A stretch of DNA of 64,000 nt from Prorocentrum cordatum (taxonomy: Eukaryota; Sar; Dinophyceae; Prorocentrales; Prorocentraceae), in assembly GCA_963575745.1 (NCBI GenBank), contig CAUYUJ010009424.1, forward strand, positions 66,001-130,000, in the 5' to 3' direction. A program made the translations under genes and the position numbers. Shown piece after piece: positions 32,574 to 59,623 of the stretch. Position 1 is the stretch's first letter, and each line of letters begins with the position of its first letter. Under the pieces are notes generated by a model. The model saw nothing but the letters and a program-made list of their open reading frames with translations. It ran no database searches and was not told the DNA's origin.

Positions 32574-32618
<45 letters not shown>

Positions 32619-34083: not shown

Positions 34084-34118
<35 letters not shown>

Positions 34119-34844: not shown

Positions 34845-35935
<1,091 letters not shown>

Positions 35936-43128: not shown

Positions 43129-43700
43129 ATGGTGTTAGTGACGGCGATGATGGTGACGATGATGGTGATGATGACGGGAGGAGGCTTTGACTATACTTAG
43201 CTCGTTGCAAGTTAGCTTGAGCGCAGCGGCCAACAGGACTGGCACAGGCTGCACACGAGAAGCCCGAGAGCATGGACGCTGAGCTGCTTCCGCTCTCGTC
43301 CCGAAAACTGTCAGGAGAGAGGTATTGGCGCTGAGGGAGGAGAGGAGAGGTATCATTACGAATGAGGAAGAGATAGCAGCGCCGTGCGAAGAGAGACATC
43401 AGCGGCACCCTGCTTCGTTGCCCATAGAAGGGCAGCCCTCGATGCAGAGAGCAGTGCGAGGCAGGAAAAAGAAAAGACCTGCCTGGGAGTGCCTTCCGAA
43501 TTTCGGGCTGCTATAAAGAAGGAAGAGCTGGACGGAGGGCCAAAATGGCCAGGCCGCATTGCGGCTGTCCAAACCTCCAGGGGAGGAGATCTGGACTGAA
43601 GGAGGAGCGAGGGAAGTCGTAAGAGGCGGGAGAGGAAGAAGGGCCGGAATGGCATGGCCGTGTTGCAGGGCGTACGCTGCAGCTGAGAGGCCTGTACGGG
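43129..43700. other. Boundary zone between satellite array 3 and the retroelement tail
   Basis: A GATGGTGACGATG-type run (43130-43180) is followed by unique sequence. Frames are below 145 codons on either strand with no motifs. Confidence 0.4.
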
Positions 43701-44895
43701 CCGACCGCGGCGGGGAGGTGGGTGTGCCTGGGCGCTAGCCGAGACCAGACAACAGAGACCCACCTCCGTGTGGCCCCTCACAGGCACACAGGGACCAAGG
43801 GGACCATGCTACACCTGGACGAGGGCCAGAGAGACAAGCCAAGGCCAGTTCCGCGTTCCTCCCACGAGGCACATATGTTTGCCGAGGCCTTGCTTCAGCC
43901 GCACAGCCAAGACGCACTGGGGCATGGTGCCTGTCTGCATATATGGCACCTTCGCTGGCCGCCTTAGCCGAGAGTTACTCGGCGGGGCTGTGCTGTAGCA
44001 TCGTCGAGGTATTGAGCTGCCAAGGTGAACCAAGAGTATTAGGCCAGCTCGCCACCTAGGAGACTCAGCCGTGGCGAGTCTGCGAATTGCTGTGTGAGCA
44101 AGCCGATCGCTGTATAGCGAGGCTGCTAAGAAGTGCCGCGTTGGCCCCACTCCTGCGGCAAGGTGAAAGGTCGAGCCCCTGATTGGCAACGACTCTTGCA
44201 CAGGCCCTCCAAGGGGGGCCGGTAAAAAGCAGAGTGACTAGGTGGGCTGCCGAGGTATGTATTAGGCTGGCCCCGCCCCTGTGTGGCGCATGACGGTTGC
44301 ATCATGGGCGCCCATCCCATATTACCCGAGATGGTGCCGACTGGATGCCGCACAGTTAAAGGCCTTACGGGCGCTGAAAGAGATGCAGCTGCAGCTGAAA
44401 GGCCTGCGCGGGCCGTCCGCGACGGGGAGGTGGGTGTGCCTGGGCGCTAGCCGAGACCAGACAACAGAGACCCACCTCCGCGTGGCCCCTCACAGGCACA
44501 CAGGGACCAAGGGGACCCTGCTACACCTGGACGGGGGCCAAAGAGATGCGTCGGGGCAGAGGCCACGTTCCTCTCATGAGGCACGAGTCTGCGAATTGCT
44601 GAGTGGGCCAGCTGATCGCTGTTTAGCGAGACTGTTAAAATGTGCTGCGCTGGCTGCACTAGTGCAGCAAAGTGAGAAGTCGCGCCCCTGAGTGGCGACT
44701 ACTCCTGGACAGGGCCCTCTAAAAGAGGGGCCGGTGGAGAAAAGAGCGCTAGGTGGGCTGCCGAGGTAAGTATTAGGCGGACGCCCCTGTGTGGCACATT
44801 TACGGTAGCGCCATGGGCACCCATCCCATATTGGCTGAGATGGTGTCGAATGGTGCCGCAAGAGCTGCAGTGAGAGTGTGCACCTGAAGGCCTCA
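43701..44895 (-). repeat. Duplicated modules with hairpin-forming boxes behind the retroelement ORFs
   Basis: Module 1 at about 43714-43840 recurs at 44426-44560, a 712-bp shift (GGAGGTGGGTGTGCCTGGGC, GACCCACCTCCG, CACAGGCACACAGGGACC). Module 2 at about 44068-44351 recurs at 44583-44865 (GAGTCTGCGAATTGCTG, AGGTGGGCTGCCGAGGTA, CCCATCCCATATT). In module 1 the boxes GGAGGTGGGT and ACCCACCTCC can pair (43714-43723 with 43758-43767; 44426-44435 with 44470-44479). The modules probably belong to the 3' untranslated end of the minus-strand element. Confidence 0.75.
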
Positions 44896-44992
44896 CTGCA
44901 GCGGAATGTATGCCGGCTTGGCCGGCCTTAAATTGGAGACGCGGTGTCTCCTTTATAAGAGTTTGGCTTGATTAAAGAAGGCTTGGGCTGAA

Positions 44993-45048
44993 TAGGTGGC
45001 GGGCTGCAGGCAAACCAGGATCTGCGCAGTGTGCTAACCCACCACCTA
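44993..45048. other. Hairpin, 13-bp arms (TAGGTGGCGGGCT)
   Basis: 44993-45005 pairs with 45036-45048, with two mismatches and a 30-nt loop. It is related to the hairpin at 45219-45298. Confidence 0.65.
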
Positions 45049-45218
45049 TGCGTGAGGACTCGGCCGTGGCGAGTCTGCGAATTGATATGTGTGAGCGGCG
45101 CTTAGCCGCCTCACTGTTAGCGGGAAGGGCTGGGCGCTGCTAGACTCGCGTGGCGTACAACTCAGCTATGCAGGGCGGCTCGACCGACCTTGAGTTGGAG
45201 CGGCATGGCTCCAGCTGT

Positions 45219-45298
45219 TTAGGTGGTGGGCTGCCGAGGTGGAGATAAGACGCTGAAAGGATGTGGAAAGGAAAGTATTGGGCGAGCCCACCACCTAA
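45219..45298. other. Perfect 14-bp stem hairpin (TTAGGTGGTGGGCT)
   Basis: 45219-45232 and 45285-45298 are exact reverse complements, with a 52-nt loop. The stem ends about 80 bp from the last stop codon of the minus-strand ORF series. Confidence 0.75.
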
Positions 45299-45379
45299 GT
45301 ATGCCCGCTGCTAGTGGCGCCGAGGTCGCTTAGGACGACCTAAAAGGGCGCTGACTGATGCGTCATTAGCGTGGCCCGC

Positions 45380-45922
45380 TCAGGCGCTGAAGGGCGACGG
45401 GTTGAGAGTGCGGGCGGCAGCCGAGAGCGCCGAGAGACCTGCCGCTGTCGCCGCCGCACGCGCCTGGGCCTCTTGCGCGGCAGCCTGCTGCTGGTTGTAG
45501 TGGCTCCCCAGCATGGCCTCCACCTCAGAGATGGTCGCCAGGCCTGGGGTCTCGATCCACTCCCAGTCCCAGGTTTCGACGACCTGGCCGTCGATGACGT
45601 CCAGCGACTTGAGCTTCCAAACGAACGGGTATAGCATGCCGTTGGGCATCTTCCATTCGCCCGGGCAGGTGGAGGGCCACCACTTTTTGAACTCGCGCGT
45701 GGCGGCCGTGTATTGGGAGCCCTGCCAAGCCGAACCAGCATAGGTGTCCCCTGTGAGGCCGAAGAGCTCCCGCGTGTCAGGCGACGCCCTGCTGGCCTCG
45801 GCCGCTCCCGCCTCCGCCGCGGCCGCAGCGGAACCACCCGCGGGAGGCATGGGCACCATGGCGGCGTGGGGCGCGCTGAGAGAAGGGGGGGAGTGCCGAG
45901 GAAGCAAAAAGAAATAGCCCAT
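45380..45922 (-). CDS. Retroelement accessory ORF (180 aa), function unknown
   Basis: The ORF starts at ATG 45922, 30 bp after the stop of the preceding ORF. An Ala-rich N-terminal part leads to a compact segment with many aromatics (EFKKWWPSTCPGEWKMPNG, VWKLKSLDVIDGQVVETWDW, EWIETPGLATI), followed by an Ala/Gln helix-like tail (YNQQQAAAQEAQARAAA). The Trp-rich part looks like a folded domain, but I do not recognise it. It is the last ORF of the series, and its tight spacing suggests that it is translated from the same RNA. The frame is intact. Confidence 0.6.
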   Translation of the reverse strand: MGYFFLLPRHSPPSLSAPHAAMVPMPPAGGSAAAAAEAGAAEASRASPDTRELFGLTGDTYAGSAWQGSQYTAATREFKKWWPSTCPGEWKMPNGMLYPFVWKLKSLDVIDGQVVETWDWEWIETPGLATISEVEAMLGSHYNQQQAAAQEAQARAAATAAGLSALSAAARTLNPSPFSA

Positions 45923-45952
45923 AAGCCAACGGCGGCCAGATGTGAGTGAAAC

Positions 45953-47121
45953 CTAGCTGGCCTGTGCTAGCATCTGTGTGAGGAGGACCCTCCTGACGGG
46001 CCGACTGATGCACGCCTGGCCTGGTGCGGAGTCTATAGGGATGAGGATGTTGCCGCTACGCATGTTGACCCGCAGCGCAAGGCCGGTGCGGTATGGTATG
46101 CCCGTGCCAAATAGGATGGGCCGTGCATCCATCTCCTGAAGGATGGGGAGGTGAAAAATGCGCGGCCTTTCCACAGAGGATGGCAGCCTGGTCTCCTGCC
46201 CATGGAATTGCTCCATTAGGAGCCCTACATTGATGGGCAGTGGGGACCAGAGCGAAATGGGGCCTGTCGTTATCACTACCATCCACTGCACTGCTGTAGG
46301 CGGTGGTGGCGCTGCTTCAGTGGGGGCGCAGCGGAAGTCACCGTGCTCGAACTGCGGCAGGTGCTGCGCCTCTGGGGTCGGCATGGCCTGAGGGATTAGG
46401 GTTCGGGGAGGCGGAGGATTCGAGCGAGGTGGGACAACGGGAGGCAGAATGGCCGAACCATGATCATGGCTTGGAAGTCTATAAGGATGGGGCTGCCAGC
46501 CGCTGCATCCTGCAAAAGCTTGTGAGGGCTGAGGGAGGCCTGCTCCCAGGCCCCCGATTGAAGTAGGACCAGAAAAAGTTGGTTCGGCACGTAAACTGAA
46601 ACTAGCCCTATGGTGGGTGAGAAACGGGCATCGTAGGGACCGTCCCCCGCAGCACATTGGGGGTAGATGTGGAGTAGGTTGGGGGAGTTGGCCTCGCGCC
46701 AGCGGCCGTGCCAGCGCTCGAGTGTGCGATTAACGGCCTTGGGCAAATCTAAGTGAAGCAGAGGGCCCACGACGGAGCGCGCGTGTGGCCATGTGGGCGG
46801 CCCGCTCTCGAGCTGCCATGTGGCTTGCCACTGGGGTGCCGCATTATGCTGGTACACCGTGGTGGGAGACAGAATGAGTGCGTGGCGCCTTGCGCCGCCG
46901 CTGAGAAAGCGGTAGACTTGCTGGTGAGCCAAAAGAAGCCGCTCAGCAAGATGCTTCCATAAGGAAGTCGAGCGAGAGGCTAGATGCGCGCTGCTTCGCG
47001 GAGCTAATTGTTGCCCGGGGTACACCTCAGCAGCTGGCACGTCCTCGTCTGCATCGGCGTTGTCCAGGCTACTGGGCTCGCTCCTCATGGCCTGATGGGG
47101 ATGAGGCAGGAAGGGGAGCAT
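45953..47121 (-). pseudogene. Retroelement accessory ORF with one frameshift, function unknown
   Basis: ATG at 47121 opens a 241-codon frame to 46396, and a second frame is open from before 46657 to the stop at 45953. Reading the first frame to about 46440 and then the second gives a continuous protein of about 380 residues. It includes WKHLAERLLLAHQQVYRFLS, FSPTIGLVSVYVPNQLFLVL and SPILIDFQAMIMVRP in the first frame, then a Pro-rich hinge and LPINVGLLMEQFHGQET, LFGTGIPYRTGLALRVN and SGNILIPID in the second. Two similar hydrophobic strand-rich halves suggest a folded protein, perhaps an internal duplication. No family was recognised. The shift could be a decay mutation, a sequencing error or programmed frameshifting. 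Confidence 0.55.
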
Positions 47122-47178
47122 ATAGAGGAAAGAGGGAGAGGTTAGGCTTAGGCTGGGGGCTAGCTGCCTGGCAAGGGT

Positions 47179-48471
47179 CTAGCGCCTGGCAGCCTCTCCT
47201 CCTTCATGAGGTTTGCGCGGCCTCCTGGGCGACAGACGCTGACCGCAATGCGAGAGGCTTTCGCCATCTCGCAATTGCATCTTGAGGCGCTCCCTGTGTA
47301 TCCTGTCGATACGGAGCTGGTCCTGCCTATGCTCTTCTTTGAGCTGAGCAATTTTATTCTCATGCTCCTTGAGAAATGCGCTGCGCTGTTCGTCCGCTGC
47401 TGCGGCTGACGCAGCTGCAGCTGCGACTGTAGGCGGCAGGCGCGTAGCTACATGGCCAGAATGGTGAGACTTACGAGCCTTGTGATGCCTTGTAGGAGGT
47501 GAGGCTGGTGACGAGGCCGGGCCGTGGGAATCCTGCGGGCTGCTTTGAGCCTCTACTGGATCTCGGCGCTGTGGCATAGGCTGCTCGTCCGAGGCTGCAT
47601 CAGACGCTTTGGCAGGCGAACTTGAGCGCTGTGCTGCATGGGCCGCGCGGTGCGCCTTGGCCTTGCGAGCTCTATGGTGCCTAGGGGGAGGAGAGGCTGG
47701 AGGTGTCGGCGTGCCGAGGGACTCCTGCGGGCTGCTATGTGCCTCAGCAGATTCCCTGCGTATTGGCGCAGACTGTTTGAGCGCGCTTTTGCGCGGCTCG
47801 TCGCGTAAGCGCGAATTATGGGCCACCTTGGGGGGCTTGGCTGAGAACTCGTCCGCAAATGAGACCTGCTTGCGCTTGCGAGTTGCAGAGGCGCGGGGCG
47901 CAACTGACTGTTCCGCCGGCTCTGGAGAGTCGAGCGGAGGAAATGGTGAGGAGGCAGAGGAATATGAGGCGTCGTCCACCTGATCCAGCCTTCTAGGCGA
48001 TGCTGGGGGACTAGAAGGCTTGCTTGGCTGGCTCTTGAATGGCGCAGCTTTGCGGGACTGTTTGCGAGGCTCGCGCAGGGGTGGAGGCGAGGTGCACGCT
48101 GAAAGGGGGGGAGAAAAAGGAGAAGCTGCCTGGCCTATCCAGCCTTCCGGAATGGCTGCTTTAGCAGGCACCCTGGGATGCTCTGGGGGCGGCAAGGGAG
48201 GCAAGGCTGGCGGAGGTGGCGGAGGGCGAAAAGTGGCCCCGTAGATGTGCCTGCCTCGACCCATGGGGGGGCCGCTGAAATCGCCAGGCGGCCGCGGGGG
48301 ATCTGAGGCAGGTGGGGTGCTGGACAGAGAGCGCTGCACCGCTTTGGCTACCTGGGCGAATTGGGCAGGCGAAAGGAGGGGTGGAGGAGCTGAGGCGGAC
48401 CGAAATTGGCCCGGTGGGGGATGCTTAGGCCTGGCTTCACGCGGCACCAGCACCCATGGCCGTCTGGACAT
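47179..48471 (-). CDS. Retroelement accessory ORF: Pro/Ser-rich basic protein with C-terminal coiled coil
   Basis: ATG at 48471 lies 14 bp after the stop of the previous ORF and gives 430 residues. The frame is open further upstream, but that part overlaps the previous ORF. Most of the protein is Pro/Ser/Lys/Arg-rich and disordered in appearance. An internal duplication pairs RRESAEAHSSPQESLG with RRDPVEAQSSPQDSHG, each followed by PPRHHRARKAKAH or PPTRHHKARKSHH. The C-terminal end (FLKEHENKIAQLKEEHRQDQ) is a short coiled coil. The basic, disordered character would suit RNA or DNA binding, which is inference only. The frame is intact. Confidence 0.6.
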   Translation of the reverse strand: MSRRPWVLVPREARPKHPPPGQFRSASAPPPLLSPAQFAQVAKAVQRSLSSTPPASDPPRPPGDFSGPPMGRGRHIYGATFRPPPPPPALPPLPPPEHPRVPAKAAIPEGWIGQAASPFSPPLSACTSPPPLREPRKQSRKAAPFKSQPSKPSSPPASPRRLDQVDDASYSSASSPFPPLDSPEPAEQSVAPRASATRKRKQVSFADEFSAKPPKVAHNSRLRDEPRKSALKQSAPIRRESAEAHSSPQESLGTPTPPASPPPRHHRARKAKAHRAAHAAQRSSSPAKASDAASDEQPMPQRRDPVEAQSSPQDSHGPASSPASPPTRHHKARKSHHSGHVATRLPPTVAAAAASAAAADEQRSAFLKEHENKIAQLKEEHRQDQLRIDRIHRERLKMQLRDGESLSHCGQRLSPRRPRKPHEGGEAARR

Positions 48472-48485
48472 GGGAGGGATGCCAG

Positions 48486-49061
48486 CTAAGCGTCGAAGAT
48501 GTCGGCGTTGAAGTCCTGCGGGGCGGGCGAGGCGGGGCGCCACATGTGAGAGAAGGAAATTCCCGTGAGCGGGACGGGTCGTGCCGCTTGACGGGAACGT
48601 TCGGCCCTGATTTGCCTGGCCCGCTCCCTATTGCACTGGATGCGCCTTTTCTGATCCAGAGTTAGGGAAGGCGGGGGTGGCGGCGGAGGGAGGGTGGAGG
48701 GAAAAATGGGGGCTGTGCCCAAAAAGTGCATGGCCTCTTGTTCCGCTTCCGAGTCCTGATCTGCGGGATCAGGCTGCTCGTGAGCCTCTGCGGGGAGGTC
48801 GCTATGGCGCCGCGGCTCGCGGGGCCTGGAGAGAGCCAAAAGCCTGCGGAAGCGGTCCAGCTCCCCATCTACCTTGGCACGGGTGCGAGGGGCGGAGGAA
48901 TCAACAAAGTCGGGGCCTAGCCACAAGTCGCTGGTCATGGAAGCGGAGAAGCGGAGGAGGGGAGCCAGGACCGAGGGGTCCGACTGGGGAAGAGGATCTT
49001 GCGGGTCGTCAACCAATGGTAAAATGACGTCCTGATATATAGCCTGGGCGAGACTTCGCAA
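48486..49061 (-). CDS. C-terminal continuation of the RT-methyltransferase polyprotein (frameshifted)
   Basis: This 191-codon frame starts within the end of the methyltransferase-like domain. RSLAQAIYQDVILPLVDD is the likely continuation of that domain after a shift near 49065-49090. The rest includes DFVDSSAPRTRAKVDGELDR, an acidic stretch, a Pro run, and a basic helix (QKRRIQCNRERARQIRAERS), ending FNADIFDA at 48486. The ATG at 49061 is probably an internal Met. Confidence 0.6.
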   Translation of the reverse strand: MRSLAQAIYQDVILPLVDDPQDPLPQSDPSVLAPLLRFSASMTSDLWLGPDFVDSSAPRTRAKVDGELDRFRRLLALSRPREPRRHSDLPAEAHEQPDPADQDSEAEQEAMHFLGTAPIFPSTLPPPPPPPSLTLDQKRRIQCNRERARQIRAERSRQAARPVPLTGISFSHMWRPASPAPQDFNADIFDA

Positions 49062-51001
49062 AGGGCAGAAGGATAGGTCTTTTTGTCAGCAGTGAAAAAG
49101 CGGTCATTCTCGTCCTTACCTAGAAGTGTACGATGTGACCCCCGTGGGTGCGTGCACCTGGTCCCTTGGGGACGGTTATTTAGGAGCTCTGGGAGCGAGG
49201 GAAGACGTAGCGATAGCAAGCGCGTGGGGGCTTTGCCGAATTCGTTAGGAGGTCGGCAAGACGGCTGGAACATGCACTGGTCGATGTCCGTGGTGCGGAC
49301 AGCCGGAGCAGCAGCCAGGGCCATTAAAGGTCTCCAAATCCAGCTAGGCTGCGCCCTGGGTTCCCAGTGGGCAGGGCATGGATGTTCCATCCATGCCGAG
49401 GTGCCCATTTCCAAATGAGCGGCAAAAAGTAGAACCAATGAGGCGAGTAGCAAGTTGGCAATCTGCAGTTGGCGGGATTGCTTGGGAGTTGCGTTGGGGA
49501 TGCCCCAGTAGTGCTCGGCAGTGCGCAGCGGCGGTGGCCCGTTGGGCTTCCATCGGGCCGCGCAAAAGGTTTCGCACGGCGGGCCCCCACCTGGAACAAC
49601 CACTCTGCCGGCATAAATATGTTGTTGCCATAGCTTAATGGTCTCCGACTTGGTGAGATCGCCCAAGTCGGGGTCGATAGCAATATCGACCGACAGTATA
49701 TGTACCTCTATGGAGGGGTCAGGCGTAAAAGATTCCAGGTGATGCTGGATATCTCCTTCGCGCCTGCGGCCAGAGAAAAGATTGAGGATGAAAATTTCCT
49801 TGCGCCTTATACGGGCTGGAATTTCTCTGGTCGATAGACCAGAATACTCGTCTGGTTGGAATGGCCATTCAGGCAACGCAGGGAGAGGAGGAGGTAGTGC
49901 CGGAGGGACATCGGCGGGAAAAAGTAGAGCGACGGCTGCAGAGTCCAGCGCGCAATCTGTAGCCGCCATTATGGCGCGCGCATCTGCTTGAGACAAGTGT
50001 TTGGCAAAGTCACGAAAGTGTTGTGTGGTGGCGCGCTTGGCACGATGTGCCGGTATTGCCACGCGCCATCGACCTACGCCCGACTTTACTTGAAGCTTGG
50101 CATTTTCGCAGCGTTGCATAGCAAGCGCTGTGATTTGCTCTTGAGGTAGGCGTTGGGAATGGCAGAGGAGGTAGAGAGCACATATGAAGGAGTCGAAACA
50201 GAGGTGCTGCATGAGACTGGCGCGTGAGCCAAAGGGGAGGCTACAGGCCGGGCACACCTGGGTGTCCGGTACTAGGCCCTTGACCCTGTGGGACAAGGTC
50301 CAATGCGCCTGGGCAACGTGTTGCTTTAGCCCTCGAAATTTTAAAAATGTGCGCGTGCACCATGGACAAGTGAGCACCGTTGGATAGTGCGCTGCCACGC
50401 GTTGCTGCTCGATCGGGTGCTGTACATGGTCCGTCGGCAGGGGGATCCCACATGGGACAGCAATGGTAAAAAAGTGCTTGGCAGCTGCCTCAGCGAGTGC
50501 TGCGCGAGCGAAATGCTGCGCCCCCGCTGTAAGGGCGCTGCGAATTCGGCGCTTCCATCCTGTGTGGGACTGGAGAGCTAGGGCCTCCCACTGGTCCAGG
50601 TGCGACACTGGCGAGGGCATTTGTTCAAGATTGGCAGAAAATTCGCCCAGCCACTGCAGGTCTTTCTGCACCAGGGCAAGCCACGAATCCGGGACGTCTG
50701 CGGCTAGTTTGGCCAGCAGGGAGGTGAGGTGCGGAGGTCCCGTGCGGGGGAGTCTGCCAAAGAGGCGCAGACGCATTGCACTAAAGATATGCGGTAGAGG
50801 GGGTCTGCAGACCTTGGCCAGGATAAATGAGTCTCGCTCTGCCGTGCTGTCGCACCTTGGGAGGTGGAGCAAGCGCCTGTACATTCTCATGAGTTCTCCT
50901 TGTAAGGAGACCTTTGTGCGGCCCAGTGAGCAATGGCCAAACAGCTGCATTAAAAAGGCGGGAAGAGAGGATGAGGGAGTCCAGTAAATGCAAGTGCTCA
51001 T
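48935..51001 (-). CDS. RT thumb, C2H2 zinc fingers and cytosine-methyltransferase-like domain of the retroelement
   Basis: The first 20 residues are out-of-frame sequence. From GELMRMYRRLLHLPRC on, the frame continues the RT of 50781-54164 after a shift at about 50890-50940. Residues 210-235 form a C2H2 finger (LTCPWCTRTFLKFRGLKQHV, then H), and 247-275 a second, imperfect one (VCPACSLPFGSRASLMQH). Residues 403-645 look like a Rossmann methyltransferase: ILNLFSGRRREGD (motif I-like), ILSVDIAI, a GGGPPCETFCAARW loop resembling motif IV of C5 cytosine methyltransferases (PPC), and WMEHPCP where ENV would be expected. A conserved tail follows (DIDQCMF, APTRLLSLRLPSL). If active it would methylate DNA or RNA at cytosine, but that is unproven; the target-recognition part is not recognisable. 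Retroelement capture of cytosine methyltransferases has been reported in dinoflagellates. Confidence 0.72.
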   Translation of the reverse strand: MSTCIYWTPSSSLPAFLMQLFGHCSLGRTKVSLQGELMRMYRRLLHLPRCDSTAERDSFILAKVCRPPLPHIFSAMRLRLFGRLPRTGPPHLTSLLAKLAADVPDSWLALVQKDLQWLGEFSANLEQMPSPVSHLDQWEALALQSHTGWKRRIRSALTAGAQHFARAALAEAAAKHFFTIAVPCGIPLPTDHVQHPIEQQRVAAHYPTVLTCPWCTRTFLKFRGLKQHVAQAHWTLSHRVKGLVPDTQVCPACSLPFGSRASLMQHLCFDSFICALYLLCHSQRLPQEQITALAMQRCENAKLQVKSGVGRWRVAIPAHRAKRATTQHFRDFAKHLSQADARAIMAATDCALDSAAVALLFPADVPPALPPPLPALPEWPFQPDEYSGLSTREIPARIRRKEIFILNLFSGRRREGDIQHHLESFTPDPSIEVHILSVDIAIDPDLGDLTKSETIKLWQQHIYAGRVVVPGGGPPCETFCAARWKPNGPPPLRTAEHYWGIPNATPKQSRQLQIANLLLASLVLLFAAHLEMGTSAWMEHPCPAHWEPRAQPSWIWRPLMALAAAPAVRTTDIDQCMFQPSCRPPNEFGKAPTRLLSLRLPSLPELLNNRPQGTRCTHPRGSHRTLLGKDENDRFFTADKKTYPSALCEVSPRLYIRTSFYHWLTTRKILFPSRTPRSWLPSSASPLP

Positions 51002-54000
51002 GAAGCCAGGTACTGGAAGAGTGGCGCAAAAATTGCCTGGCTAGATTACGCCAGCTGGGGGCCGCCTCCGATCGCCCGTGGGCGAGTTCGGGGCCTATAC
51101 TGCCCTTTTCGTCCAGGTGTGTGCCTAGATATGTGTATATTCTGGCGAAGTGGAGGGAGAAAGGCGAATGCCCTAGAGCAGGTGAGACTAGCATGTGCCC
51201 ATTGAGCCCTTGGGGGTCCCAGAGCTTGCGGCGAAGGGATATGGAAGCTTCCCCTCTAAACTGAAAAAGGCACATGGTTTTGTTGGCTTGAAACTTTAGC
51301 TTGATGCCTGAGAGCGCGTAGGCTTCAACTATGGTGGCCATTAGTGCGGGCATGGCGTCAAATAGCTCCTTAGTGGGACCAAGGAAGGCAGATGCACCAT
51401 CATCGAAAAAGCATGAGTCCAGATATTGGTGCACTTCTGTCTCTGCGGAGGCAATATTGTCCTTGTGATGAGCGAAAAAAGAGCGCGGGGCATCCTTGTT
51501 CACCTGGACATTGAGAATAAGGTGTGCAAGCGGTGATTCGGTGAGCTGCTTGACAGCTTCGTTGTTGGCTCGGGCCATGAGGAAGTTGAAAAGAACATCT
51601 CCGAGCTGCTGTCCTGGGATGGTGCCACGTAATGTGAGTGCAACCCCTGAGGCTCCCGGGTAAAAGGCCCAAGTATGCTCGTATGCAGCCGAGATTTGAG
51701 CATGGAGATGCGGGGGGAGACCAGCCTCCTGCAGAATAGGAGGGGCAGAGAGCAAGTGTCTTATTAGTTCTTCCCCTGTCTCCTGAGGGAGATCAAGGGA
51801 GGCAACTAAGTAGTAGAGGTCGGCTTGTTGCGAGTCGCAGTAAAATATGAGCTGCCGGAGGGCCCTGTAAAAGGCTGAGACAGCGTCTATAAATATGTAC
51901 GCTGAGGAAATACGCAGGCTATTTGCGTAGGCTTGGTGCGCTAAGACCGCGAGCGTGGCGAAATCTGTGCCCCGTCCAGCAATGCCGCCTGATTGCGAGG
52001 CGCCTGCCATGGGAGGAAGATATTCCACCAGTTCTTTACGCAATAGGGCACGATGCCGCTTGGAGGAGTGGGGGGAGGCCATTACCGAGCGGGAGTTGGC
52101 CATTATGGCCGGATTGCCTTTACCCTTAAAAATGTCGAAATTGTATCCTCCCCGCCAAGCCAGCGGTTCCTCAAGGCGCACCTGCGCCTTGAGGTGGACA
52201 GGGTAATACTGCTTCGCAAGTAGACGGTGAAACGACTTGACAAAGGCTCCTTTGAAGCCATCCACACTGGCTGCCGAGTCTGGGGTTCTGGCATAGGCGC
52301 GCTCGATTTGCGCTAGGGAGAAAAGGGAGTATGGAGGGGGAATATCCACAGTAAGGTCAGCGGGCAAATACGATGCACTAGCGTCGTAGGCCTTGGCATG
52401 TTTGAGCGGAATAACCGCGCCATGCTCCTGTCGAGCAAAATGGGATAGCCACGTGTCGGCCGCTTGGGTGGCGTCCACCACGAAGGTGCCCGCTGCCGTG
52501 GAGAGGATAGGTAGGGGAGAGGAGCGCAGCTTCTTTTTGGAGCCCACGCCCAACGTGCGTAAGCGCGCAAAGGCAGTGCGTTGTTGTGAGGTCTGCCATG
52601 CCTCGTGAACTTCGGCAGCAATGCCTTGTAGGTGAAAGGCGGCATCCAGGTCGACGGAGCACCGTACAGCCTGAGTGAATTGGGCAAGGACGATGGCCCT
52701 GATGGCGCTTGCGCGTGCGCGTAGCTGGATGGCAGCCGCGTGTGCGGTACCTATGGTAGGCGCAGAGCAAGCATGAGGGAGACGGGTTTTAGCAACGCGA
52801 GTAGGCGAGGATGCTAGAAACTGATACAAGCAGGCCATGCGAATTCTGGGCTTCCATTTAATGGAGGCATTAGGGTCAGCCATGCTGGCCCGCATGCCGC
52901 GGAGAGCAGCGCCGAGCTCCGCAAGTTCGGCAAAAGCATTATTGATTGCGGGCATCATCGAGAGCTCTTCGTGATGGCGCAATGCCGCTTTAGGACGTGT
53001 AAATGCTTGCCTGGATCGCACATATCGCTTCCATGCCGCGATAGCTGCCAGTAGGAAAAGATTGCGTGCTTCCTGTTGAAGCGTGTCGGCTTGGCTGACA
53101 GTTAAAGCTCTGGCATCCATGAGCCTAAGGGTGGCCATGGAGACGCGGGAATTGGAAGGCGCGCGACCTGTAGACGTGCGGGGTTGGGGAAATGCCTGTA
53201 GCATGGCGTTGCGCGCCTCCCTGTGTAATATGAGCGCGTGGTCTGAGGCATGCAGGTCGAAAGTTAAAGTTTCAGGGGGAGGCGAGAAAGTGTCTTCAAA
53301 AAGCTGTCTGGCCGACGGGTCTAGGTATGCATTGGGGTCGTGCAGAATACGCATGACCTGGCGTCCCTGGTCCTCATTAGGTCGGAGCTGCAGCTTGAAT
53401 TGGCATAATAAGCACGGAACAGCGTGGTCTAACACTGCGAGTGCTAGAGAAAGAGAATACTTGACTTCGCATTCGTTGGCAGAGGCACCTAAAGGTATAG
53501 CTATATAGTCCCTGCGCTTCCAGTGCTGTTTGAAAGCGGGGTCACGTGCTGGCGCAATCCATGCGCCTGCCCCCATAGGGTGTGGCACAAAGGTGGCCGG
53601 CAGCCAGAGCTTAGATGCAAGTAAGAAGCGATGGAAAAAGGAGCCAGCCGTGTTAACTTGCTCCGCGTGTTGTGGGCCAGTGGCCGCTGATGTTTGCGCG
53701 CCCACTGCAGCATTGGAGTCCATTAGGACAATAGTAGGCGTAGGCTGCGGTAAAATATGGTCGTGCACATGTCTAAGGTGCTGCCACCATACGACCTGTT
53801 CGTGGAGAGGACGCCCTGAATGATGAGCATGTGCCACGAGGATGCTGAAACGTAGGCCGTTCTGACTGATGACTGCCGCAATAATGCGCGGGTCTTGGTG
53901 TACAATACGCACGCTGTGAGACTTAATAGGGAAAGTGGGAATGCCTTTGGCATTGGGAAAAACGGGCGTGGTAAGGTTGACCCATAGCGCACAGCCGCAG

Positions 54001-54164
54001 GCATGAGTTCCAGCCTGAGACTTTGACAAAAAGACTACGTACGGGGGAACCTGGCGCTTGCCAGAGCCCGTGTCTGTGACTCGCGTCTCTTGCATACCGA
54101 TAACGTCGAGCCCGTTGCGTTGAAAAGCGGCGGCCAGTTGGTGGAGGCGTCCTTTGACGGCCAC
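50781..54164 (-). CDS. Retroelement APE-type endonuclease and reverse transcriptase
   Basis: This is the longest clean frame of the element (1127 codons). Residues 1-255 are an endonuclease-exonuclease-phosphatase domain: IGMQETRV (catalytic E26), VLMDSNAAVG (D149), KRRDYIAIP and LDHAVP. Its first strand, LASANILSLS, lies in the neighbouring frame upstream (54215-54250), so the frame really begins before the ATG at 54164. RT spans about 600-1000: DIFKGKGN, SQSGGIAGRG, motif A YIFIDAVSAFY (D760), motif B RGTIPGQQLGDVLFNF, and motif C CFFDDGASAF (D921, D922), with FFDD in place of the common YADD. The frame leaves the true RT thumb at about codon 1075. All core catalytic residues are present. 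Confidence 0.85.
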   Translation of the reverse strand: MAVKGRLHQLAAAFQRNGLDVIGMQETRVTDTGSGKRQVPPYVVFLSKSQAGTHACGCALWVNLTTPVFPNAKGIPTFPIKSHSVRIVHQDPRIIAAVISQNGLRFSILVAHAHHSGRPLHEQVVWWQHLRHVHDHILPQPTPTIVLMDSNAAVGAQTSAATGPQHAEQVNTAGSFFHRFLLASKLWLPATFVPHPMGAGAWIAPARDPAFKQHWKRRDYIAIPLGASANECEVKYSLSLALAVLDHAVPCLLCQFKLQLRPNEDQGRQVMRILHDPNAYLDPSARQLFEDTFSPPPETLTFDLHASDHALILHREARNAMLQAFPQPRTSTGRAPSNSRVSMATLRLMDARALTVSQADTLQQEARNLFLLAAIAAWKRYVRSRQAFTRPKAALRHHEELSMMPAINNAFAELAELGAALRGMRASMADPNASIKWKPRIRMACLYQFLASSPTRVAKTRLPHACSAPTIGTAHAAAIQLRARASAIRAIVLAQFTQAVRCSVDLDAAFHLQGIAAEVHEAWQTSQQRTAFARLRTLGVGSKKKLRSSPLPILSTAAGTFVVDATQAADTWLSHFARQEHGAVIPLKHAKAYDASASYLPADLTVDIPPPYSLFSLAQIERAYARTPDSAASVDGFKGAFVKSFHRLLAKQYYPVHLKAQVRLEEPLAWRGGYNFDIFKGKGNPAIMANSRSVMASPHSSKRHRALLRKELVEYLPPMAGASQSGGIAGRGTDFATLAVLAHQAYANSLRISSAYIFIDAVSAFYRALRQLIFYCDSQQADLYYLVASLDLPQETGEELIRHLLSAPPILQEAGLPPHLHAQISAAYEHTWAFYPGASGVALTLRGTIPGQQLGDVLFNFLMARANNEAVKQLTESPLAHLILNVQVNKDAPRSFFAHHKDNIASAETEVHQYLDSCFFDDGASAFLGPTKELFDAMPALMATIVEAYALSGIKLKFQANKTMCLFQFRGEASISLRRKLWDPQGLNGHMLVSPALGHSPFSLHFARIYTYLGTHLDEKGSIGPELAHGRSEAAPSWRNLARQFLRHSSSTWLHEHLHLLDSLILSSRLFNAAVWPLLTGPHKGLLTRRTHENVQALAPPPKVRQHGRARLIYPGQGLQTPSTAYL

Positions 54165-55113
54165 GCCTGTAAGTCTGGCTCTTTGGGAGATGCGCGAGGC
54201 AGGAGTGAGAGAGAGAGAGAATGTTGGCTGAGGCTAGCCTGAGACAGCATGATGCCGTGGCGTCTGCGATCGGGGCTGCCTCTTTGAAGAGACCTGGAAA
54301 AACATCAGCAAGCGAGGTGCGCGGGGGGAGAGGAGGATTGAGGCTAACTTGATGGTTTGGCGGGTAAAGCGCACGCTGTTGCTGAGGCAGGCACTCAAGC
54401 CAGAGCCATTCCAATATATGCGCATTGTCTTGGAGAAAGCTCATGAGGGGCGGGAGAACTGGCGGAGGTAGGAGTGCGAGGGAGTAAAGTCTGGCGACTG
54501 TGTCAACCATTTCGTTGAGCGGGTCGGCTTGGTGACCGTGCACGTGCTGCCATGTAAAGTGGCGTTTTAGGCCCAGTACCTTGCATAGACTGTCGAGGCG
54601 GCTTCTATGCTCCATTAGTGGCTCAGCCACTGTGCCGCCTTTGGCGGTGGCGACAACATCCATGTTGTCTGAGTGAAAGGTGATAGGAACGGCGGGAGGG
54701 AGGGGGGGCTGTAGAGCCCATAGCGCCGCCCAAGTGGCGGCATCGAATTCCGCTTTAGCGGAGACTCTATCTGCTCCCATAGTCTCCGGGGTGGGACACC
54801 CTAGGAATCCTAGAAAGTGTCGAGTGCCGTTAAGCCATGCAAAGACCAGAAAAGCCCACGCTGGTGGGCCAGCAAGATCTCCTTTGGAGGCCCCTCCGCT
54901 GGCGTCGGTATATATATCCGCGGAGTCAAAAGCCGCGTAGGGAGTATCAAAGACAAAGCTGTGCCATGTGGGGATGGAGGAGGAGTGGAGGGCTGGAAAG
55001 ATGACATCGAAGTCCCTGACCAGCTGTATGGAGGTAGCCGTAAGCACCGGTAGCATCCACCTCATGGGCGGGAGAGGGCTGCGGCGTATACCTTGCCGCC
55101 CCCCCAGGTTCAC
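53923..55113 (-). CDS. Retroelement RNase H domain leading into the endonuclease
   Basis: A GTG at 55113 overlaps the TGA of the preceding ORF (GTGA at 55110-55113). Residues 65-210 carry an RNase H with all four acidic positions: ADIYTDASGG (D70), VSAKAEFDAATWAAL (E122), TFHSDNMDVV (D149) and HVHGHQADPLNEMVDTVA (D204). At 293 the first strand of the endonuclease (RLASANILSLS) begins in the same frame. A shift in a (GA)7 run at 54207-54220 then moves the true reading to the frame of 50781-54164, and this frame ends in nonsense at 53923. RNase H removes element RNA from the cDNA hybrid. Its place ahead of the endonuclease is unusual: in I, R1 and Tad type LINEs it follows the RT. Confidence 0.8.
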   Translation of the reverse strand: MNLGGRQGIRRSPLPPMRWMLPVLTATSIQLVRDFDVIFPALHSSSIPTWHSFVFDTPYAAFDSADIYTDASGGASKGDLAGPPAWAFLVFAWLNGTRHFLGFLGCPTPETMGADRVSAKAEFDAATWAALWALQPPLPPAVPITFHSDNMDVVATAKGGTVAEPLMEHRSRLDSLCKVLGLKRHFTWQHVHGHQADPLNEMVDTVARLYSLALLPPPVLPPLMSFLQDNAHILEWLWLECLPQQQRALYPPNHQVSLNPPLPPRTSLADVFPGLFKEAAPIADATASCCLRLASANILSLSHSCLAHLPKSQTYRRGRQRTPPPTGRRFSTQRARRYRYARDASHRHGLWQAPGSPVRSLFVKVSGWNSCLRLCAMGQPYHARFSQCQRHSHFPY

Positions 55114-57482
55114 CCGTGGGCAGTGTCCGGGGGGGCGACCTGAAAAACCGTGCCGTCGCGCGCTGCCTGGGCTAAATCGTCCTGAGCAGCTTGTGCCGCG
55201 TGGGCCTCGGCTTCAGCACGGAGGTCCGCAGCCTCTGCTTCTGCCATTGCATCTGCAGGGCTGCGTGGGGTGGACGAGGCGGATGCCCCTGCACGTGCCT
55301 TTGGCTCATCCTCGGCTGTCTCGGGCTTGGGGCGCCGTGATCCGCGAGGGCTCTTGCTGCGTGCTGACTGCCTAGCTACAAAATCTTCCTCGCTGATGCC
55401 TGATAGCGCGCGCTGCTCGGTCTGACCCGCACGTGCGGGTCTGCCCCTGGCCTGCGCGCTTGCGCTGCGGCGGGGGGATGCCATGGAAACTGGCTCGCCT
55501 TTTTCATCGGAGAGGTCCCGCCCAATCTGGCTGGCAGAGCGGGTAGGTGGGGGCATGCCGCTGGGATCCTCTACGGAAGCTGATGCCGGGCTTTGCTGAT
55601 TGATAGCGTCTTCCCTAACTGAGCTATCTTGAAACGAGGGCGCAGTGGTGATCGCCTCCCCTGTCGGCGACTTGGGCACTGGCGCTGGCCCGGGTTTGGG
55701 CACGAAACCTAGGCGGAATAACGGGCCTGCTTTGGGGGAAGCGCGGGCCTGTTCACATCCTAACGGCGCTGTGGTCCCCCCTCGGACCGTAGCGCCGTGG
55801 CTAGGGGCGGCGGCTGGCACTAATTGCCCGGCCTTGATCTGTGAGACTAGGGTTTCTACTGAGTTGCGCATGGCTTGGGCCTGGGAGTCAAAATTTGCCT
55901 TAATGGTGGCAACTTCCCTGGCCATGGCCTCGGCGTTGCTTTGCATGGCCGCAGAGAGTGATGTGATGTAAGGCTGTTCCAATCCTTGGATGCCTGGAAT
56001 GGGCGCTGGGCAATGGAGGAGTGGGGGAGAGGTCGGCGCTGCCGTGAGGGGCGTTGCCGTTCCCAGGTCATGTGGGTCGGCTTGCTCCTCACCTGTATGC
56101 GTTGCAGAGAGTGTCGCAGTGCGCTGTACTGCACCCGGCTCCTCCGTCGCGTCCCCCATCATGAGCGAGTCAGTGATGGCGGCGACTGGCGGTGCTTGCG
56201 ACTTGAAATAAGCTAGTAGCATGGCAGCCTGGCTGAGGTCCGCTTGTGCGGTCTGAAGGGCCAGGGCAATGTTGCGCACGTGCTCCTCCGCCTGCGTTTG
56301 TTTGGCTGCCAATTGCTCACAATTGGCCTGCAGGGAGGCCACCACGTGCTCTTGCTCGCTAATCTTGGCCAGCGGATCCCTCGCGTTGGCCAGTTGAAAA
56401 TTAACTAGTGAAATCTCCTTACGGATCTCGGTGATACGCATATCGGAGTGTCCTAGGAGAGTTGAGGCCCTAAGCTGCAGGATTAGTGCCTCCTTGCTCA
56501 TTGCAAGGGCCTTGCGGTGCTCCAGCAGGCGGTCGGGCTCAAGCGGGGGGTAAAGCCAGGCTGAGTGAGAGTGCGCCTCGTCTGGGGTAAGGGTAGGGCA
56601 ATGCGCTGTGAGCTCCGCCTCCGAGAGTTCGGTGGCGGGATCCAGCGCACCAAGCGAGGCAGAGGCCTGTTCGGCCGCGAGGAAAGGAGACTGCTGTACA
56701 GAGGTAGGGCCGAAGAGTGTAGGGGGAGTGGCCACGCCGTCTTGAGGAGGCGCAAAAGGGGAAGGCAGTGACTGGGGAGACTGCCCTATGATGCCTGTGT
56801 CCTTGGCCCCGTGTGGGGTGCCAGGAGCCTTCAATGGAGGCTGCTCCCCGTCTCTGCGCTGGTACTCGCGAGCTCTGCGAGCGTCGTCCTTCTCTCGCTT
56901 CTTGCGCTCCTTGTTGGAGATCCCAGCCTCTTGGACCGCATGATCTCCTGGGGGCGCGGGGAGCAGGCCGTATTCCGCTGCCCATGCAGCCACCTGGTCG
57001 AAGGACGGCGCACCTGTCGGTGCGGGGCCCTTGCCCTGGTGCGCCCCCCCCGTGCTGCCTGAAAAGGAGCGAGGGCCCTTGTGGCCCGGCCCCGCGCCTC
57101 CATCATGCAGGGGCCTGTGCTGCCCCTGACCTTTGACTGGGCCGACCTTCGCTTGTTGGTGACCTGCGGCCCGAGTTGGAAAACAGTTGGGACATGAGGC
57201 ATCCAAAGTGGTATTGGCCCGGCCACATTGCAGGCAATGCCAGAACTCGGGCGGGGCGCTGCCTTTCTGGTGCACTGGCTGCTGGGGTGGAGGAAAAAAG
57301 TCCAAGGGCAGGCGCGTGGCATAAAGAGACGGTGAGGGAGGGGCAGCCAAGCGCTGGGTGGGAGAAGTAGCCATGCCGTGCTGCTGCAGCCCAGATAATG
57401 GCGCATGCTGAGGGGGTAAGGTAGGAGGAACAGCACCTTGCTGGGGGATGCCCTGAAAGGAGTGGTGCTGTGAAAGCATCAT
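55110..57482 (-). CDS. Retroelement ORF1 (Gag-like) with RanBP2-type zinc finger and coiled coil
   Basis: The frame is open from 57917, but its first part runs through a dispersed repeat and a poly-T tract. The ATG at 57482 (MMLSQHHSFQG) is the first plausible start, giving 790 residues. Residues 81-100 form a Zn-ribbon of RanBP2 type (FWHCLQCGRANTTLDASCPN, then CF). A Gly/Lys-rich stretch follows, then a basic KERKKREKDDARRAREYQRR helix. A long coiled coil (about 375-470) contains ITEIRKEISLVNFQLANA and EQLAAKQTQAEEHVRN. The C-terminal third is Ser/Pro/Arg-rich with an Ala/Glu end. It would bind the element RNA as a Gag or LINE ORF1 does. Its stop overlaps the GTG of the RNase H ORF, consistent with frameshifting or re-initiation. 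There are no internal stops. Confidence 0.78.
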   Translation of the reverse strand: MMLSQHHSFQGIPQQGAVPPTLPPQHAPLSGLQQHGMATSPTQRLAAPPSPSLYATRLPLDFFPPPQQPVHQKGSAPPEFWHCLQCGRANTTLDASCPNCFPTRAAGHQQAKVGPVKGQGQHRPLHDGGAGPGHKGPRSFSGSTGGAHQGKGPAPTGAPSFDQVAAWAAEYGLLPAPPGDHAVQEAGISNKERKKREKDDARRAREYQRRDGEQPPLKAPGTPHGAKDTGIIGQSPQSLPSPFAPPQDGVATPPTLFGPTSVQQSPFLAAEQASASLGALDPATELSEAELTAHCPTLTPDEAHSHSAWLYPPLEPDRLLEHRKALAMSKEALILQLRASTLLGHSDMRITEIRKEISLVNFQLANARDPLAKISEQEHVVASLQANCEQLAAKQTQAEEHVRNIALALQTAQADLSQAAMLLAYFKSQAPPVAAITDSLMMGDATEEPGAVQRTATLSATHTGEEQADPHDLGTATPLTAAPTSPPLLHCPAPIPGIQGLEQPYITSLSAAMQSNAEAMAREVATIKANFDSQAQAMRNSVETLVSQIKAGQLVPAAAPSHGATVRGGTTAPLGCEQARASPKAGPLFRLGFVPKPGPAPVPKSPTGEAITTAPSFQDSSVREDAINQQSPASASVEDPSGMPPPTRSASQIGRDLSDEKGEPVSMASPRRSASAQARGRPARAGQTEQRALSGISEEDFVARQSARSKSPRGSRRPKPETAEDEPKARAGASASSTPRSPADAMAEAEAADLRAEAEAHAAQAAQDDLAQAARDGTVFQVAPPDTAHG

Positions 57483-57730
57483 CGCGGCCTTGTGCACCCT
57501 TAAAAGCGTGCGGGCGTTGGCGCGCTGCTTGCGCGCTCTACGATGAGGAGCGGGCTCGTCACGAGGCCGCTGGGGATTGGAAGGAGGAGAGTAGGCAGGC
57601 GTCGCGCCTGTCGGATGGCGGCCCGATAGGGCGTCGCAGCGGGGATCGGCGCGGAACCGGTTATGCAACCGCTCGAGCCAAACCTGACGGGAGGAGGAGT
57701 AGGGAGGGGGGAAAAGAAGAGGGAGGGAGG

Positions 57731-57800
57731 ACGCGGGGACCGTCTTTTCAAAACGAGGACCCAACAACACAGGTTGGTTTGGGAAAAACAAGCATAAAGT
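57731..57800 (-). repeat. Junction segment, reverse copy of 37018-37080
   Basis: CCGTCTTTTCAAAACGAGGA, CCCAACAACACAGG and TTTGGGAAAAACA are the reverse complement of the sequence at 37018-37080. A GGAGG run lies beside it, as a CCTCC run does in the other copy. Confidence 0.78.
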
Positions 57801-57817
57801 ACAGCCCGCGCGCAAAC

Positions 57818-57865
<48 letters not shown>

Positions 57866-58219
57866 AAAATCCGTGTTGCGAAACCAGGTGTTTTGTTTTC
57901 GTTGGTTTTTCGGACATTAGGTTTTGACATGTTTACGGCACCGACCAGTTTTGAAGGATTGCGGCATGCGCGCGCGACGATGCGCGCGTGTACACTTCGT
58001 GCAATTTGTTTCGAAGTGTTGTTGGGAACGGGTGGTTTTTGATAAACGAGTGCGCGCGCATAGTACCTGTTGCAGAAGATGGCGGGGGGGGGGTCGATAC
58101 CCGTTCCCCTGAGATGGCACGAAGCCATGGCTAGGATGGACGATGGGCCAGAATCATATGTACATTGCAGTGCGGAGAGGGGGGGCAATAATCCCGGGGG
58201 GGGATTTTTCCAGAAAGGA
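57801..58219 (+). repeat. Dispersed hairpin-repeat unit, 3' part, with T45 tract
   Basis: T45 lies at 57820-57864, just before GAAAATCCGTGTTGCGAAAC. The hairpin core is at about 57963 and the usual tail (GTGCGCGCATAGTACCTG, G-run, GATACCCGTTCCCCTGAG) follows, ending TTCCAGAAAGGAGAA. Confidence 0.88.
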
Positions 58220-59019
58220 GAACGCATTTGGGGCAAGTCTTCGTTGGGCAATCTATGTGGCGCAAGTGATATTAACAGACGAGCTGACACGTCCCATGTT
58301 CTTGCAAACAGCCCACCCACCCACCCGCAATTTGGTTTGCAAAACCAATGCGGTGGCGATTGCGATGCATGCTTGGCGTTGGCTGGTGCATCTTTGCGTC
58401 CGCGCCAACCCTAGCACTCGCGCGCAGCGGCCAGCTAGTTTGGCGCCACCGACGCGGCCGCGGTGGCGCTGACCGCTGGGCTCATCCCAGCGGGCACTTC
58501 ACTGCGATTCGGCGACTTGGGCGGGCGCGGTATCATAGCAACGCCGACTACGGTAGACACGATGATGATAGTGGCGATGCTGGTGGCGATATACGCACCG
58601 ACGAAGGCGCGGCCAGTGCGGGTGCCGATGCTGATCGCGCCGGCGACGATGACGGCGTCCTCGCGTCGGTGATGAATGTTTTGGAAAAAGTCCGACATGC
58701 GCGCGAGGCCGACGCGCGACAGTGGCCCGCATAGTCTTCTTTGACACGGCTCGTCCCCCCCCCCCCAGCACGCGCGCAAGGGCGCGCGAATGGTGTCGGC
58801 ATGCGGCGCCAGAGGCCCGTTTGGCATAACTCCATTAAAACATTTTTTCTTTTTTAAATATTTTTCTGACGAGTTCTCATGAGCGCGCGCAGTTTTTTTT
58901 GAAAACTGATGGTGCGAAATTATATGTGTTTGCATTTTTTGTTTGACATGAAATCGCTGCGACACCGAAGGTCTTTGAATGATTCCCGCATGCGCGCGCG
59001 ACGACGCGCGCGTGCGCAT

Positions 59020-59072
<53 letters not shown>

Positions 59073-59440: not shown

Positions 59441-59583
59441 GATGGCGGGGTGGGCGAAATCTGCTGGAGTGGGATGATGTGAGTTCCTATGTGGGATGGG
59501 ACGATGGTGCAGAATCATCTGTAAATTGCAGCACAAACAGATGTATCGTTAAAGCCGATGTTATATATATATATATGAGTATG

Positions 59584-59623
<40 letters not shown>

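What the first reader, a model, noticed from the sequence alone, without database searches (positions are those of the whole stretch)
45380..57482. A 12-kb minus-strand retroelement with a new-looking domain order
Read on the minus strand, the order is Gag-like zinc finger and coiled coil, RNase H, APE endonuclease, RT (FFDD), two C2H2 fingers, a cytosine-methyltransferase-like domain, then three accessory ORFs. LINEs with RNase H carry it after the RT; here it precedes the endonuclease. The RNase H keeps D70, E122, D149 and D204, and the RT keeps both DD residues. Together with the C-terminal additions this looks like an undescribed or poorly described LINE lineage.
Basis: partly seen in the sequence, partly recalled or inferred. 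Interest (0 to 1): 0.87.

Follow-up and report, generated by a model that had tools for sequence, protein, structure and literature searches.

The report
14-kb dinoflagellate LINE with front-end RNase H
This is a multi-copy jumping gene (a LINE retrotransposon) of a dinoflagellate alga whose enzyme parts come in an unusual order, with RNase H in front of the DNA-cutting domain, and some of its copies carry the alga's own RNA leader tag, which may help show which element makes the alga's many RNA-derived gene copies.

Summary
The window holds one non-LTR retrotransposon insertion, 43185-57685 on the minus strand (14,501 bp), flanked by a perfect 12-bp target-site duplication. ORF1 (zinc-finger motif) is followed by ORF2 with RNase H, APE endonuclease, RT, two zinc fingers and a MTase-like domain, then four further ORFs. 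The window copy is frameshifted, but another genomic copy reads the whole ORF2 series in one 2,240-aa frame, and a protein from another public contig fuses RNase H to endonuclease in the same order. dN/dS of 0.11-0.16 in the enzymatic domains indicates selection. The flanks read are CT-rich; nine places in the genome have the end of the dinoflagellate spliced leader exactly at the element's 5' start, so its RNA has been trans-spliced. The only precedent seen for RNase H upstream of RT is oomycete Utopia, which has another endonuclease. Weak points: the RT escapes the Pfam profile, the methyltransferase label rests on motifs alone, no RT tree could be made, and transcripts were not seen. Verdict: a real, apparently undescribed LINE lineage; new variant of a known kind.

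The parts
43185..57685 (-). Complete LINE insertion (14,501 bp), from AGGTTTGGCTCGAG... to ...AGTATAGTCAAAG
   Evidence: Boundaries by comparison with other genomic copies and exact coordinates
57686..57697 (-). Target-site duplication, 5' copy (CCTCCTCCCGTC)
   Evidence: 0 of 100,000 flank shuffles gave 12 matching bases, 1 gave 11
43173..43184 (-). Target-site duplication, 3' copy (CCTCCTCCCGTC)
57483..57685 (-). 5' untranslated leader, 203 nt; in copy C16322 the first ATG after the element start is that of ORF1
   Evidence: copy C16322; window ORF1 starts with the same MMLSQHHS
55110..57482 (-). ORF1, 790 aa, Gag-like: zinc-finger motif within 57123-57302
   Evidence: dN 0.0332, dS 0.1435 (ratio 0.23) between window copy and C16322; no Pfam family over cut-off
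48486..55065 (-). ORF2 (2,240-aa stop-to-stop frame in copy C16322, first ATG 49 codons in), interrupted by frame changes in this copy near 54.2, 50.9 and 49.1 kb
   Evidence: P0004, P0001 and P0003 cross the three interruptions in one frame
54481..54933 (-). RNase H domain (D, E, D, H, D) near the N-terminus of ORF2
   Evidence: PHROG_531 E=4.6e-6; PF00075 below cut-off; residues kept in the sequences held
53390..54245 (-). APE-type endonuclease
   Evidence: PF03372 24.7 bits, cut-off 24.5; catalytic E in 33 of 33 sequences
51141..52271 (-). Divergent reverse transcriptase, motif A FIDAVSAF, motif B GTIPGQQLGD, motif C FFDD
   Evidence: Read from sequence; D and DD in 32 of 32 sequences; weak collinear match to other LINE RTs; no Pfam RVT_1 hit
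50190..50380 (-). Two zinc fingers (C2H2, then C2HC-like)
   Evidence: PF13894 and PF23320 E about 1e-4 but below their cut-offs; PHROG_9259 E=7.6e-4; PF13894 precomputed for the homologue P0001
49061..49795 (-). MTase-like domain: LFSGRRREGD, SVDI, GDL, GGGPPCET, MEHP
   Evidence: Motifs only; no Pfam match, no meaningful PDB match, AF2 model useless; conserved in P0002 and P0003; dN/dS 0.106
48486..49061 (-).
   Evidence: Continuous with the MTase-like domain in P0003 and in copy C16322
47179..48471 (-). ORF3, proline-rich
   Evidence: No stop in three copies, dN/dS 0.353
46396..47088 (-). ORF4; ATG preceded by pyrimidine tract and CAG at 47092-47094
   Evidence: dN/dS 0.284, three copies
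45953..46384 (-). ORF5; ATG preceded by pyrimidine-rich stretch and CAG at 46388-46390
   Evidence: dN/dS 0.389, three copies, one with a stop
45380..45859 (-). ORF6
   Evidence: dN/dS 0.171, three copies
43185..45379 (-). 3' untranslated region with internal tandem duplications

Best explanation
It is one copy of a multi-copy, APE-type non-LTR retrotransposon (LINE) of a dinoflagellate, with ORF2 ordered RNase H - APE endonuclease - RT - zinc fingers - MTase-like domain, preceded by a Gag-like ORF1 and followed by four small ORFs. SHOWN from sequence: it integrates as one 13.9-14.5 kb unit with 12-bp target-site duplications in CT-rich flanks; a 5'-truncated copy exists; the coding domains carry the mark of purifying selection; copies exist whose 5' end is the spliced leader joined to the first G of the element. 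INFERRED: ORF1 packages the RNA; the APE domain nicks the purine-rich strand of a GGAGG-like tract; RT primes first-strand synthesis there (target-primed reverse transcription); the N-terminal RNase H removes template RNA; the zinc fingers hold RNA or target; the MTase-like domain may modify the new copy or the RNA. The CT-rich target together with the element's own leading AG would rebuild a 3' splice acceptor, so that each new copy can be trans-spliced again.
For: 12-bp duplications in 4 of 5 copies with both ends held, 8 bp of low complexity in the fifth. Genome search with the EN-RT protein: 41 scored of 7,320 candidates, 89-100% identity, four with a 2,240-aa frame and no stop; one of these read through RNase H, EN, RT, fingers and MTase-like domain to the end of ORF2. 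P0004, from another public contig, fuses RNase H (60% id) to EN (68% id) in one ORF. dN/dS: RNase H 0.160, EN 0.131, RT 0.106, fingers 0.124, MTase-like 0.106. Leader-element junction (last 15 nt of the leader) at 9 places, control 0; in C2683 the full leader was read. 8 of the 9 lie 7.8-7.9 kb upstream of a scored MTase-like match on the same strand (coordinates, compared by hand). 54 places with the exact 5' end, control 0.
Against: The RT is below Pfam detection and both AF2 models failed (pLDDT 32.9 and 32.2), so RT and MTase identities lean on motifs. dN/dS copies were drawn from the best matches to EN-RT or the MTase-like domain, which lowers the values of those domains; two copies were also picked for their long ORF2 frame. 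Of the 54 exact plain 5' ends, only 3 coincide with leader-tagged places, so most copies show no full leader end. The nicking strand, TPRT and the roles of ORF1 and the extra domains were not tested.
Confidence: 0.85

Rival explanations
1. Composite of nested elements: RNase H and Gag from one retroelement, EN-RT from another, accessory ORFs from host or a third element.
For: The domains lie in different frames in the window.
Against: One 12-bp duplication around the whole unit; one 2,240-aa frame in another copy; RNase H-EN fusion in another source.
Confidence: 0.02
2. A lineage already filed in Repbase or a similar library under an existing clade, with the RNase H position noted or overlooked there.
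For: Repbase is not held and dinoflagellate LINEs are abundant; I recall predicted Symbiodiniaceae proteins with a similar RT-finger-MTase-like tail (recall only, from no call).
Against: Ten paper searches showed no description of RNase H-APE-RT in the listings and passages seen; most subscription journals are not in the library.
Confidence: 0.3
3. The MTase-like domain is not a methyltransferase but another Rossmann-like or novel domain that shares short motifs by chance.
For: No Pfam match, no NCBIfam or PHROG match in its part of the ORF, no meaningful PDB match; PPCE instead of the recalled PPCQ; one copy has R for C.
Against: Order of FSG, SVD, GDL, GPPC and MEHP; the Cys is kept in 10 of 11 sequences and in P0002; selection as strong as on RT.
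Confidence: 0.45
4. The leader-tagged 5' ends descend from one tagged ancestor rather than from repeated trans-splicing.
For: Only 9 exact tagged ends were found.
Against: The 9 carry three different bases (T, C, A) at the variable position of the pattern, i.e. more than one sub-family, and 8 sit before separate copies on different contigs.
Confidence: 0.15

Closest known systems
APE-type LINEs with RNase H (I group: I, Ingi, Loa, R1, Tad1 and others, as listed in PMC4640811)
   Same: APE endonuclease, RT and RNase H (PMC4640811 lists the clades; their general order is recalled); target-site duplication
   Different: Here RNase H precedes the endonuclease; RT is beyond Pfam detection; extra MTase-like domain and four downstream ORFs; about 14 kb long
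Oomycete Utopia (PMC4640811, passages read)
   Same: RNase H upstream of the RT, a position called unique there
   Different: Utopia uses a restriction-like endonuclease after the RT and an archaeal-like RNase H with R at the fourth position; here APE before the RT and H at that position in 27 of 28 sequences
SymbioLINE-Dnmt and SymbioDIRS-Dnmt3 of Symbiodinium (PMC5890265, passages read)
   Same: Dinoflagellate retrotransposon with a cytosine-methyltransferase(-like) domain
   Different: There the DNMT is mostly in an ORF upstream of the RT ORF, or in a DIRS element; here a much more divergent domain lies after the RT in ORF2
Ordinary LINEs of the same genome (L001-L008 and window 26943-30656)
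   Same: APE then RT; collinear RT blocks
   Different: YADD or FADD at motif C; RT found by Pfam RVT_1. The stretches held of L001-L008 begin inside the endonuclease, so an N-terminal RNase H was not checked there

Membership tests
Non-LTR retrotransposon (LINE), APE type | Reverse transcriptase | tested here: inconclusive
   Motif A, B and C residues invariant in 32 of 32 sequences, dN/dS 0.106; weak profile similarity, E-values for a two-target or one-pair comparison; no Pfam RVT_1 hit
Non-LTR retrotransposon (LINE), APE type | APE endonuclease N-terminal to RT | tested here: met
   PF03372 24.7 bits over cut-off 24.5 in the RT ORF
Non-LTR retrotransposon (LINE), APE type | No long terminal repeats | tested here: met
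   Repeat search of 43000-60000 (15 direct families) found none joining the two ends; one weak 28-nt pair (75%) has its second copy outside the element
Non-LTR retrotransposon (LINE), APE type | Target-site duplications and 5'-truncated copies | tested here: met
   12-bp duplications in 4 of 5 copies; copy C12002 truncated 5' with its own duplication
I-group LINE with RNase H | RNase H C-terminal to the RT | tested here: not met
   RNase H near the N-terminus of ORF2 and before EN in P0004
Oomycete Utopia | RNase H upstream of RT | tested here: met
Oomycete Utopia | Archaeal-like RNase H (R at fourth conserved position) | tested here: not met
   H in 27 of 28 sequences, R in 1
Oomycete Utopia | Restriction-like endonuclease, insertion into U2 genes | tested here: not met
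   APE found; insertions read lie in CT-rich sequence; no RLE-specific or U2-specific search was run
SymbioLINE-Dnmt | DNMT domain in an ORF upstream of the RT ORF | tested here: not met
   MTase-like domain follows the RT in ORF2; not detected as DNMT by Pfam
C5 cytosine methyltransferase | AdoMet-dependent MTase fold with motif IV Cys | tested here: inconclusive
   Cys in 10 of 11 sequences; no profile or structure support
Named RT clade | Position in an RT tree | not testable with these tools
   No reference set of LINE RTs held

The most novel reading that the evidence does not exclude
A LINE clade built around spliced-leader trans-splicing: it inserts behind CT-rich tracts so that target plus its own AG form a splice acceptor, its six ORFs are released as separate leader-capped mRNAs from a polycistronic transcript (ORF4 and ORF5 start just after pyrimidine-CAG), and the same machinery produced the leader-tagged retrogenes of dinoflagellates, whose maker one review calls unknown (PMC6050394).
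Probability: 0.2. Interest if true: 0.88.

Novelty: new variant of a known kind. Interest (0 to 1): 0.72.

Why it matters
RNase H upstream of the RT was called unique when found in RLE-type Utopia (PMC4640811). An APE-type LINE with RNase H in front of the endonuclease shows that the module can sit on either side of the core. The element also carries a selected MTase-like domain and four extra ORFs. Its leader-tagged copies show that leader-capped RNA of an autonomous-looking LINE has been reverse transcribed and inserted in a dinoflagellate. A review called the maker of dinoflagellate retrogenes unknown and favoured Ty1/copia (PMC6050394); a later paper argued for LINEs from their proximity to tagged insertions (PMC10235124). 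This element makes the question testable: do leader-tagged retrogenes show the same 12-bp duplications, CT-rich targets and 3' junctions?

Tried and rejected
Structure prediction failed twice: MTase-like domain with 3 sequences (pLDDT 32.9) and RT alone (pLDDT 32.2); no fold search was run on such models. Protein search for the RT region found nothing among 7,993 scored candidates. Four viral-contig scans gave no relative. Profile alignment (hhalign) of EN-RT with ordinary LINEs matched only EN. The ORF1N row of the dN/dS script is invalid because of a wrong frame and was replaced. Nested elements were considered and rejected (see rivals). A search for diverged families (P0002), one for leader junctions before GCCATG as at ORF4/ORF5, one for CT-rich tracts before leaders in general, and one of the own genome with the RNase H protein were asked for and never answered, so polycistronic trans-splicing and the retrogene link remain untested. 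Papers: passages read in PMC5890265, PMC6338049, PMC4640811, PMC11453091, PMC5348765, PMC6050394, PMC12014239, PMC3229502, PMC10235124; all others only as search listings.
Full report
WHAT IS THERE. On the minus strand the window holds a complete retroelement insertion at 43185-57685 (14,501 bp). Its limits come from comparison with other copies in the same genome: similarity to copy C16322 starts and stops at these two points. The last 12 bases before the element equal the first 12 after it (CCTCCTCCCGTC), and 0 of 100,000 shuffles of the flanks gave such a match.

DOMAINS. ORF1 (790 aa, 55110-57482) has a W-x-C-x2-C...C-x2-C motif; no Pfam family passes its cut-off. The APE endonuclease just passes PF03372. 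The RT shows FIDAVSAF, GTIPGQQLGD and FFDD, but Pfam RVT_1 is silent; against ordinary LINE RTs of this genome the similarity is weak and collinear (BLAST E 0.041 and 0.21; hmmsearch E 0.0016 for two targets and hhalign E 0.006). Then come a C2H2 and a C2HC-like finger (Pfam matches below cut-off) and a domain with LFSGRRREGD, SVDI, GDL, GGGPPCET and MEHP that resembles C5 methyltransferases by motif only; Pfam, PDB sequence search and structure prediction gave no support.

THE READING FRAME. In the window the ORFs are split, but relatives cross the breaks. P0004, from a 1,836-nt public contig, joins RNase H to endonuclease in one frame (60% identity over 186 aligned positions and 68% over 155); these values lie outside the 89-100% range of the scored genomic copies. 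P0001 joins the stretch after the RT motifs to the fingers. Copy C16322 has the whole series in one 2,240-aa stop-to-stop frame, with the first ATG 49 codons in. The EN-RT search scored 41 of 7,320 candidate places, 89-100% identical; four have a 2,240-aa frame without stop, and 9 of 41 contain at least one stop. The MTase-like search scored 146 of 10,204 candidates. Candidates that were not scored are not counted as copies. The window copy is thus a decayed member of a multi-copy family whose closest scored relatives are 98% identical over EN-RT.

SELECTION. Mean pairwise dN/dS (Nei-Gojobori) among 41 sequences offered (L009-L038, L043-L050, two long copies and the window, some held twice; a sequence counted for a domain only if one ungapped stretch covered at least 85% of it; ratios from distinct sequences, given as distinct of held): RNase H 0.160 (23 of 28), EN 0.131 (29 of 33), RT 0.106 (28 of 32), fingers 0.124 (30 of 37), MTase-like 0.106 (10 of 11), ORF2 tail 0.261 (10 of 11), ORF3 0.353, ORF4 0.284, ORF5 0.389, ORF6 0.171 (three copies each), ORF1 0.23 (two copies). 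Sequences with a stop: EN 1, RT 4, fingers 3, ORF2 tail 1, ORF5 1, the other valid rows none. The copies were picked by similarity to EN-RT or the MTase-like domain, which lowers the value for those domains; RNase H, fingers and ORF3-6 were not in the queries, though the two long copies were also chosen for an unbroken ORF2. RNase H residues: first D in 26 of 28 (two not covered), E, D and last D in 28 of 28, H in 27 of 28; RT D and DD in 32 of 32; MTase-like Cys in 10 of 11 (held sequences, repeats included).

INTEGRATION. Five copies have both ends held: 12-bp duplications in four, 8 bp in the fifth, which is low-complexity. One of them (C12002) is 5'-truncated, as usual for LINEs. The flanks read are pyrimidine-rich (judged by eye), so the presumed first nick lies in GGAGG-type sequence. 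The 3' end is AGTCAAA with 3-6 A and no long tail. Of 12 copies whose 5' region was looked at, 9 are readable across the start: 8 begin AGG next to the flank and one (C2683) has the complete spliced leader there; C6613 lacks the motif, and the flanks of C14077 and C15738 read N.

SPLICED LEADER. The last 15 bases of the leader joined to the element's first G occur at 9 places in the genome and the reversed control at none; the full leader was read in one of them. The plain 5' end occurs at 54 places, control 0, 3 of which coincide with tagged places; both patterns allow no mismatch, so both are lower bounds. No leader was found in the window itself (0 matches with up to 3 mismatches). For 8 of the 9 tagged places an MTase-like match lies 7.8-7.9 kb downstream on the same strand, the distance found in copy C16322; the ninth (C16519) is not in that capped list. 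So leader-capped RNA of this element has been reverse transcribed and inserted. In the window copy, C16322 and C16133 the AG before the first G is outside the duplication, so it belongs to the element; target pyrimidines plus this AG look like a splice acceptor. Equally, AG could be what is left of a truncated leader, which ends in AG; PMC3229502 (passages) describes how a new leader is spliced at the AG of an old one. ORF4 and ORF5 also start just after pyrimidine-CAG, which suggests, but does not show, separate trans-splicing.

COMPARISON. RNase H upstream of an RT has been described in oomycete Utopia, where it was called unique (PMC4640811, passages); that element differs in endonuclease and RNase H type. 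Dinoflagellate LINEs with a DNMT are known (PMC5890265, passages) but carry it mostly upstream of the RT ORF. Ten paper searches showed no report of RNase H-APE-RT order in what I saw of them. A 2018 review says it is unknown which retroelement makes the leader-tagged retrogenes and favours Ty1/copia (PMC6050394, passages); a 2023 paper argues for LINE-mediated insertion near tagged sequences (PMC10235124, passages). This LINE is a concrete candidate with its own tagged copies.

LIMITS. RT clade placement, the MTase fold, transcripts and the retrogene link were not tested. The species is inferred, not named by any search.

Noticed in passing
26943-30656 (+): A second, ordinary LINE with APE and RT pieces (AFDRIDH, YADDI), broken into several frames.
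   Followed up: partly
3-1532 (+): Open frame resembling a Copia-type pol (recalled motif FDVATAFLSG), near the window edge.
   Followed up: no
31834-40554: Several copies (about 72-91% alike) of a dispersed repeat with long A/T runs; similar short repeats flank the element at 57.8-59.5 kb.
   Followed up: no
37120-38508 and 42223-43128: Tandem arrays of about 90-bp units in inverted orientation to each other, the second ending right beside the LINE's 3' end.
   Followed up: no
43676-44716: Duplications spaced about 510 and 712 bp inside the LINE's 3' untranslated region, making this copy longer than copy C16322 (13,905 bp).
   Followed up: partly
L001-L006: Ordinary LINEs of the same genome with equal long open-frame lengths (1,328 or 1,347 aa) in several copies, probably young.
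   Followed up: no
P0001 (protein from a public contig): Its frame seems to change at the start of the MTase-like domain, so this relative is also a decayed copy or uses a shift there.
   Followed up: no
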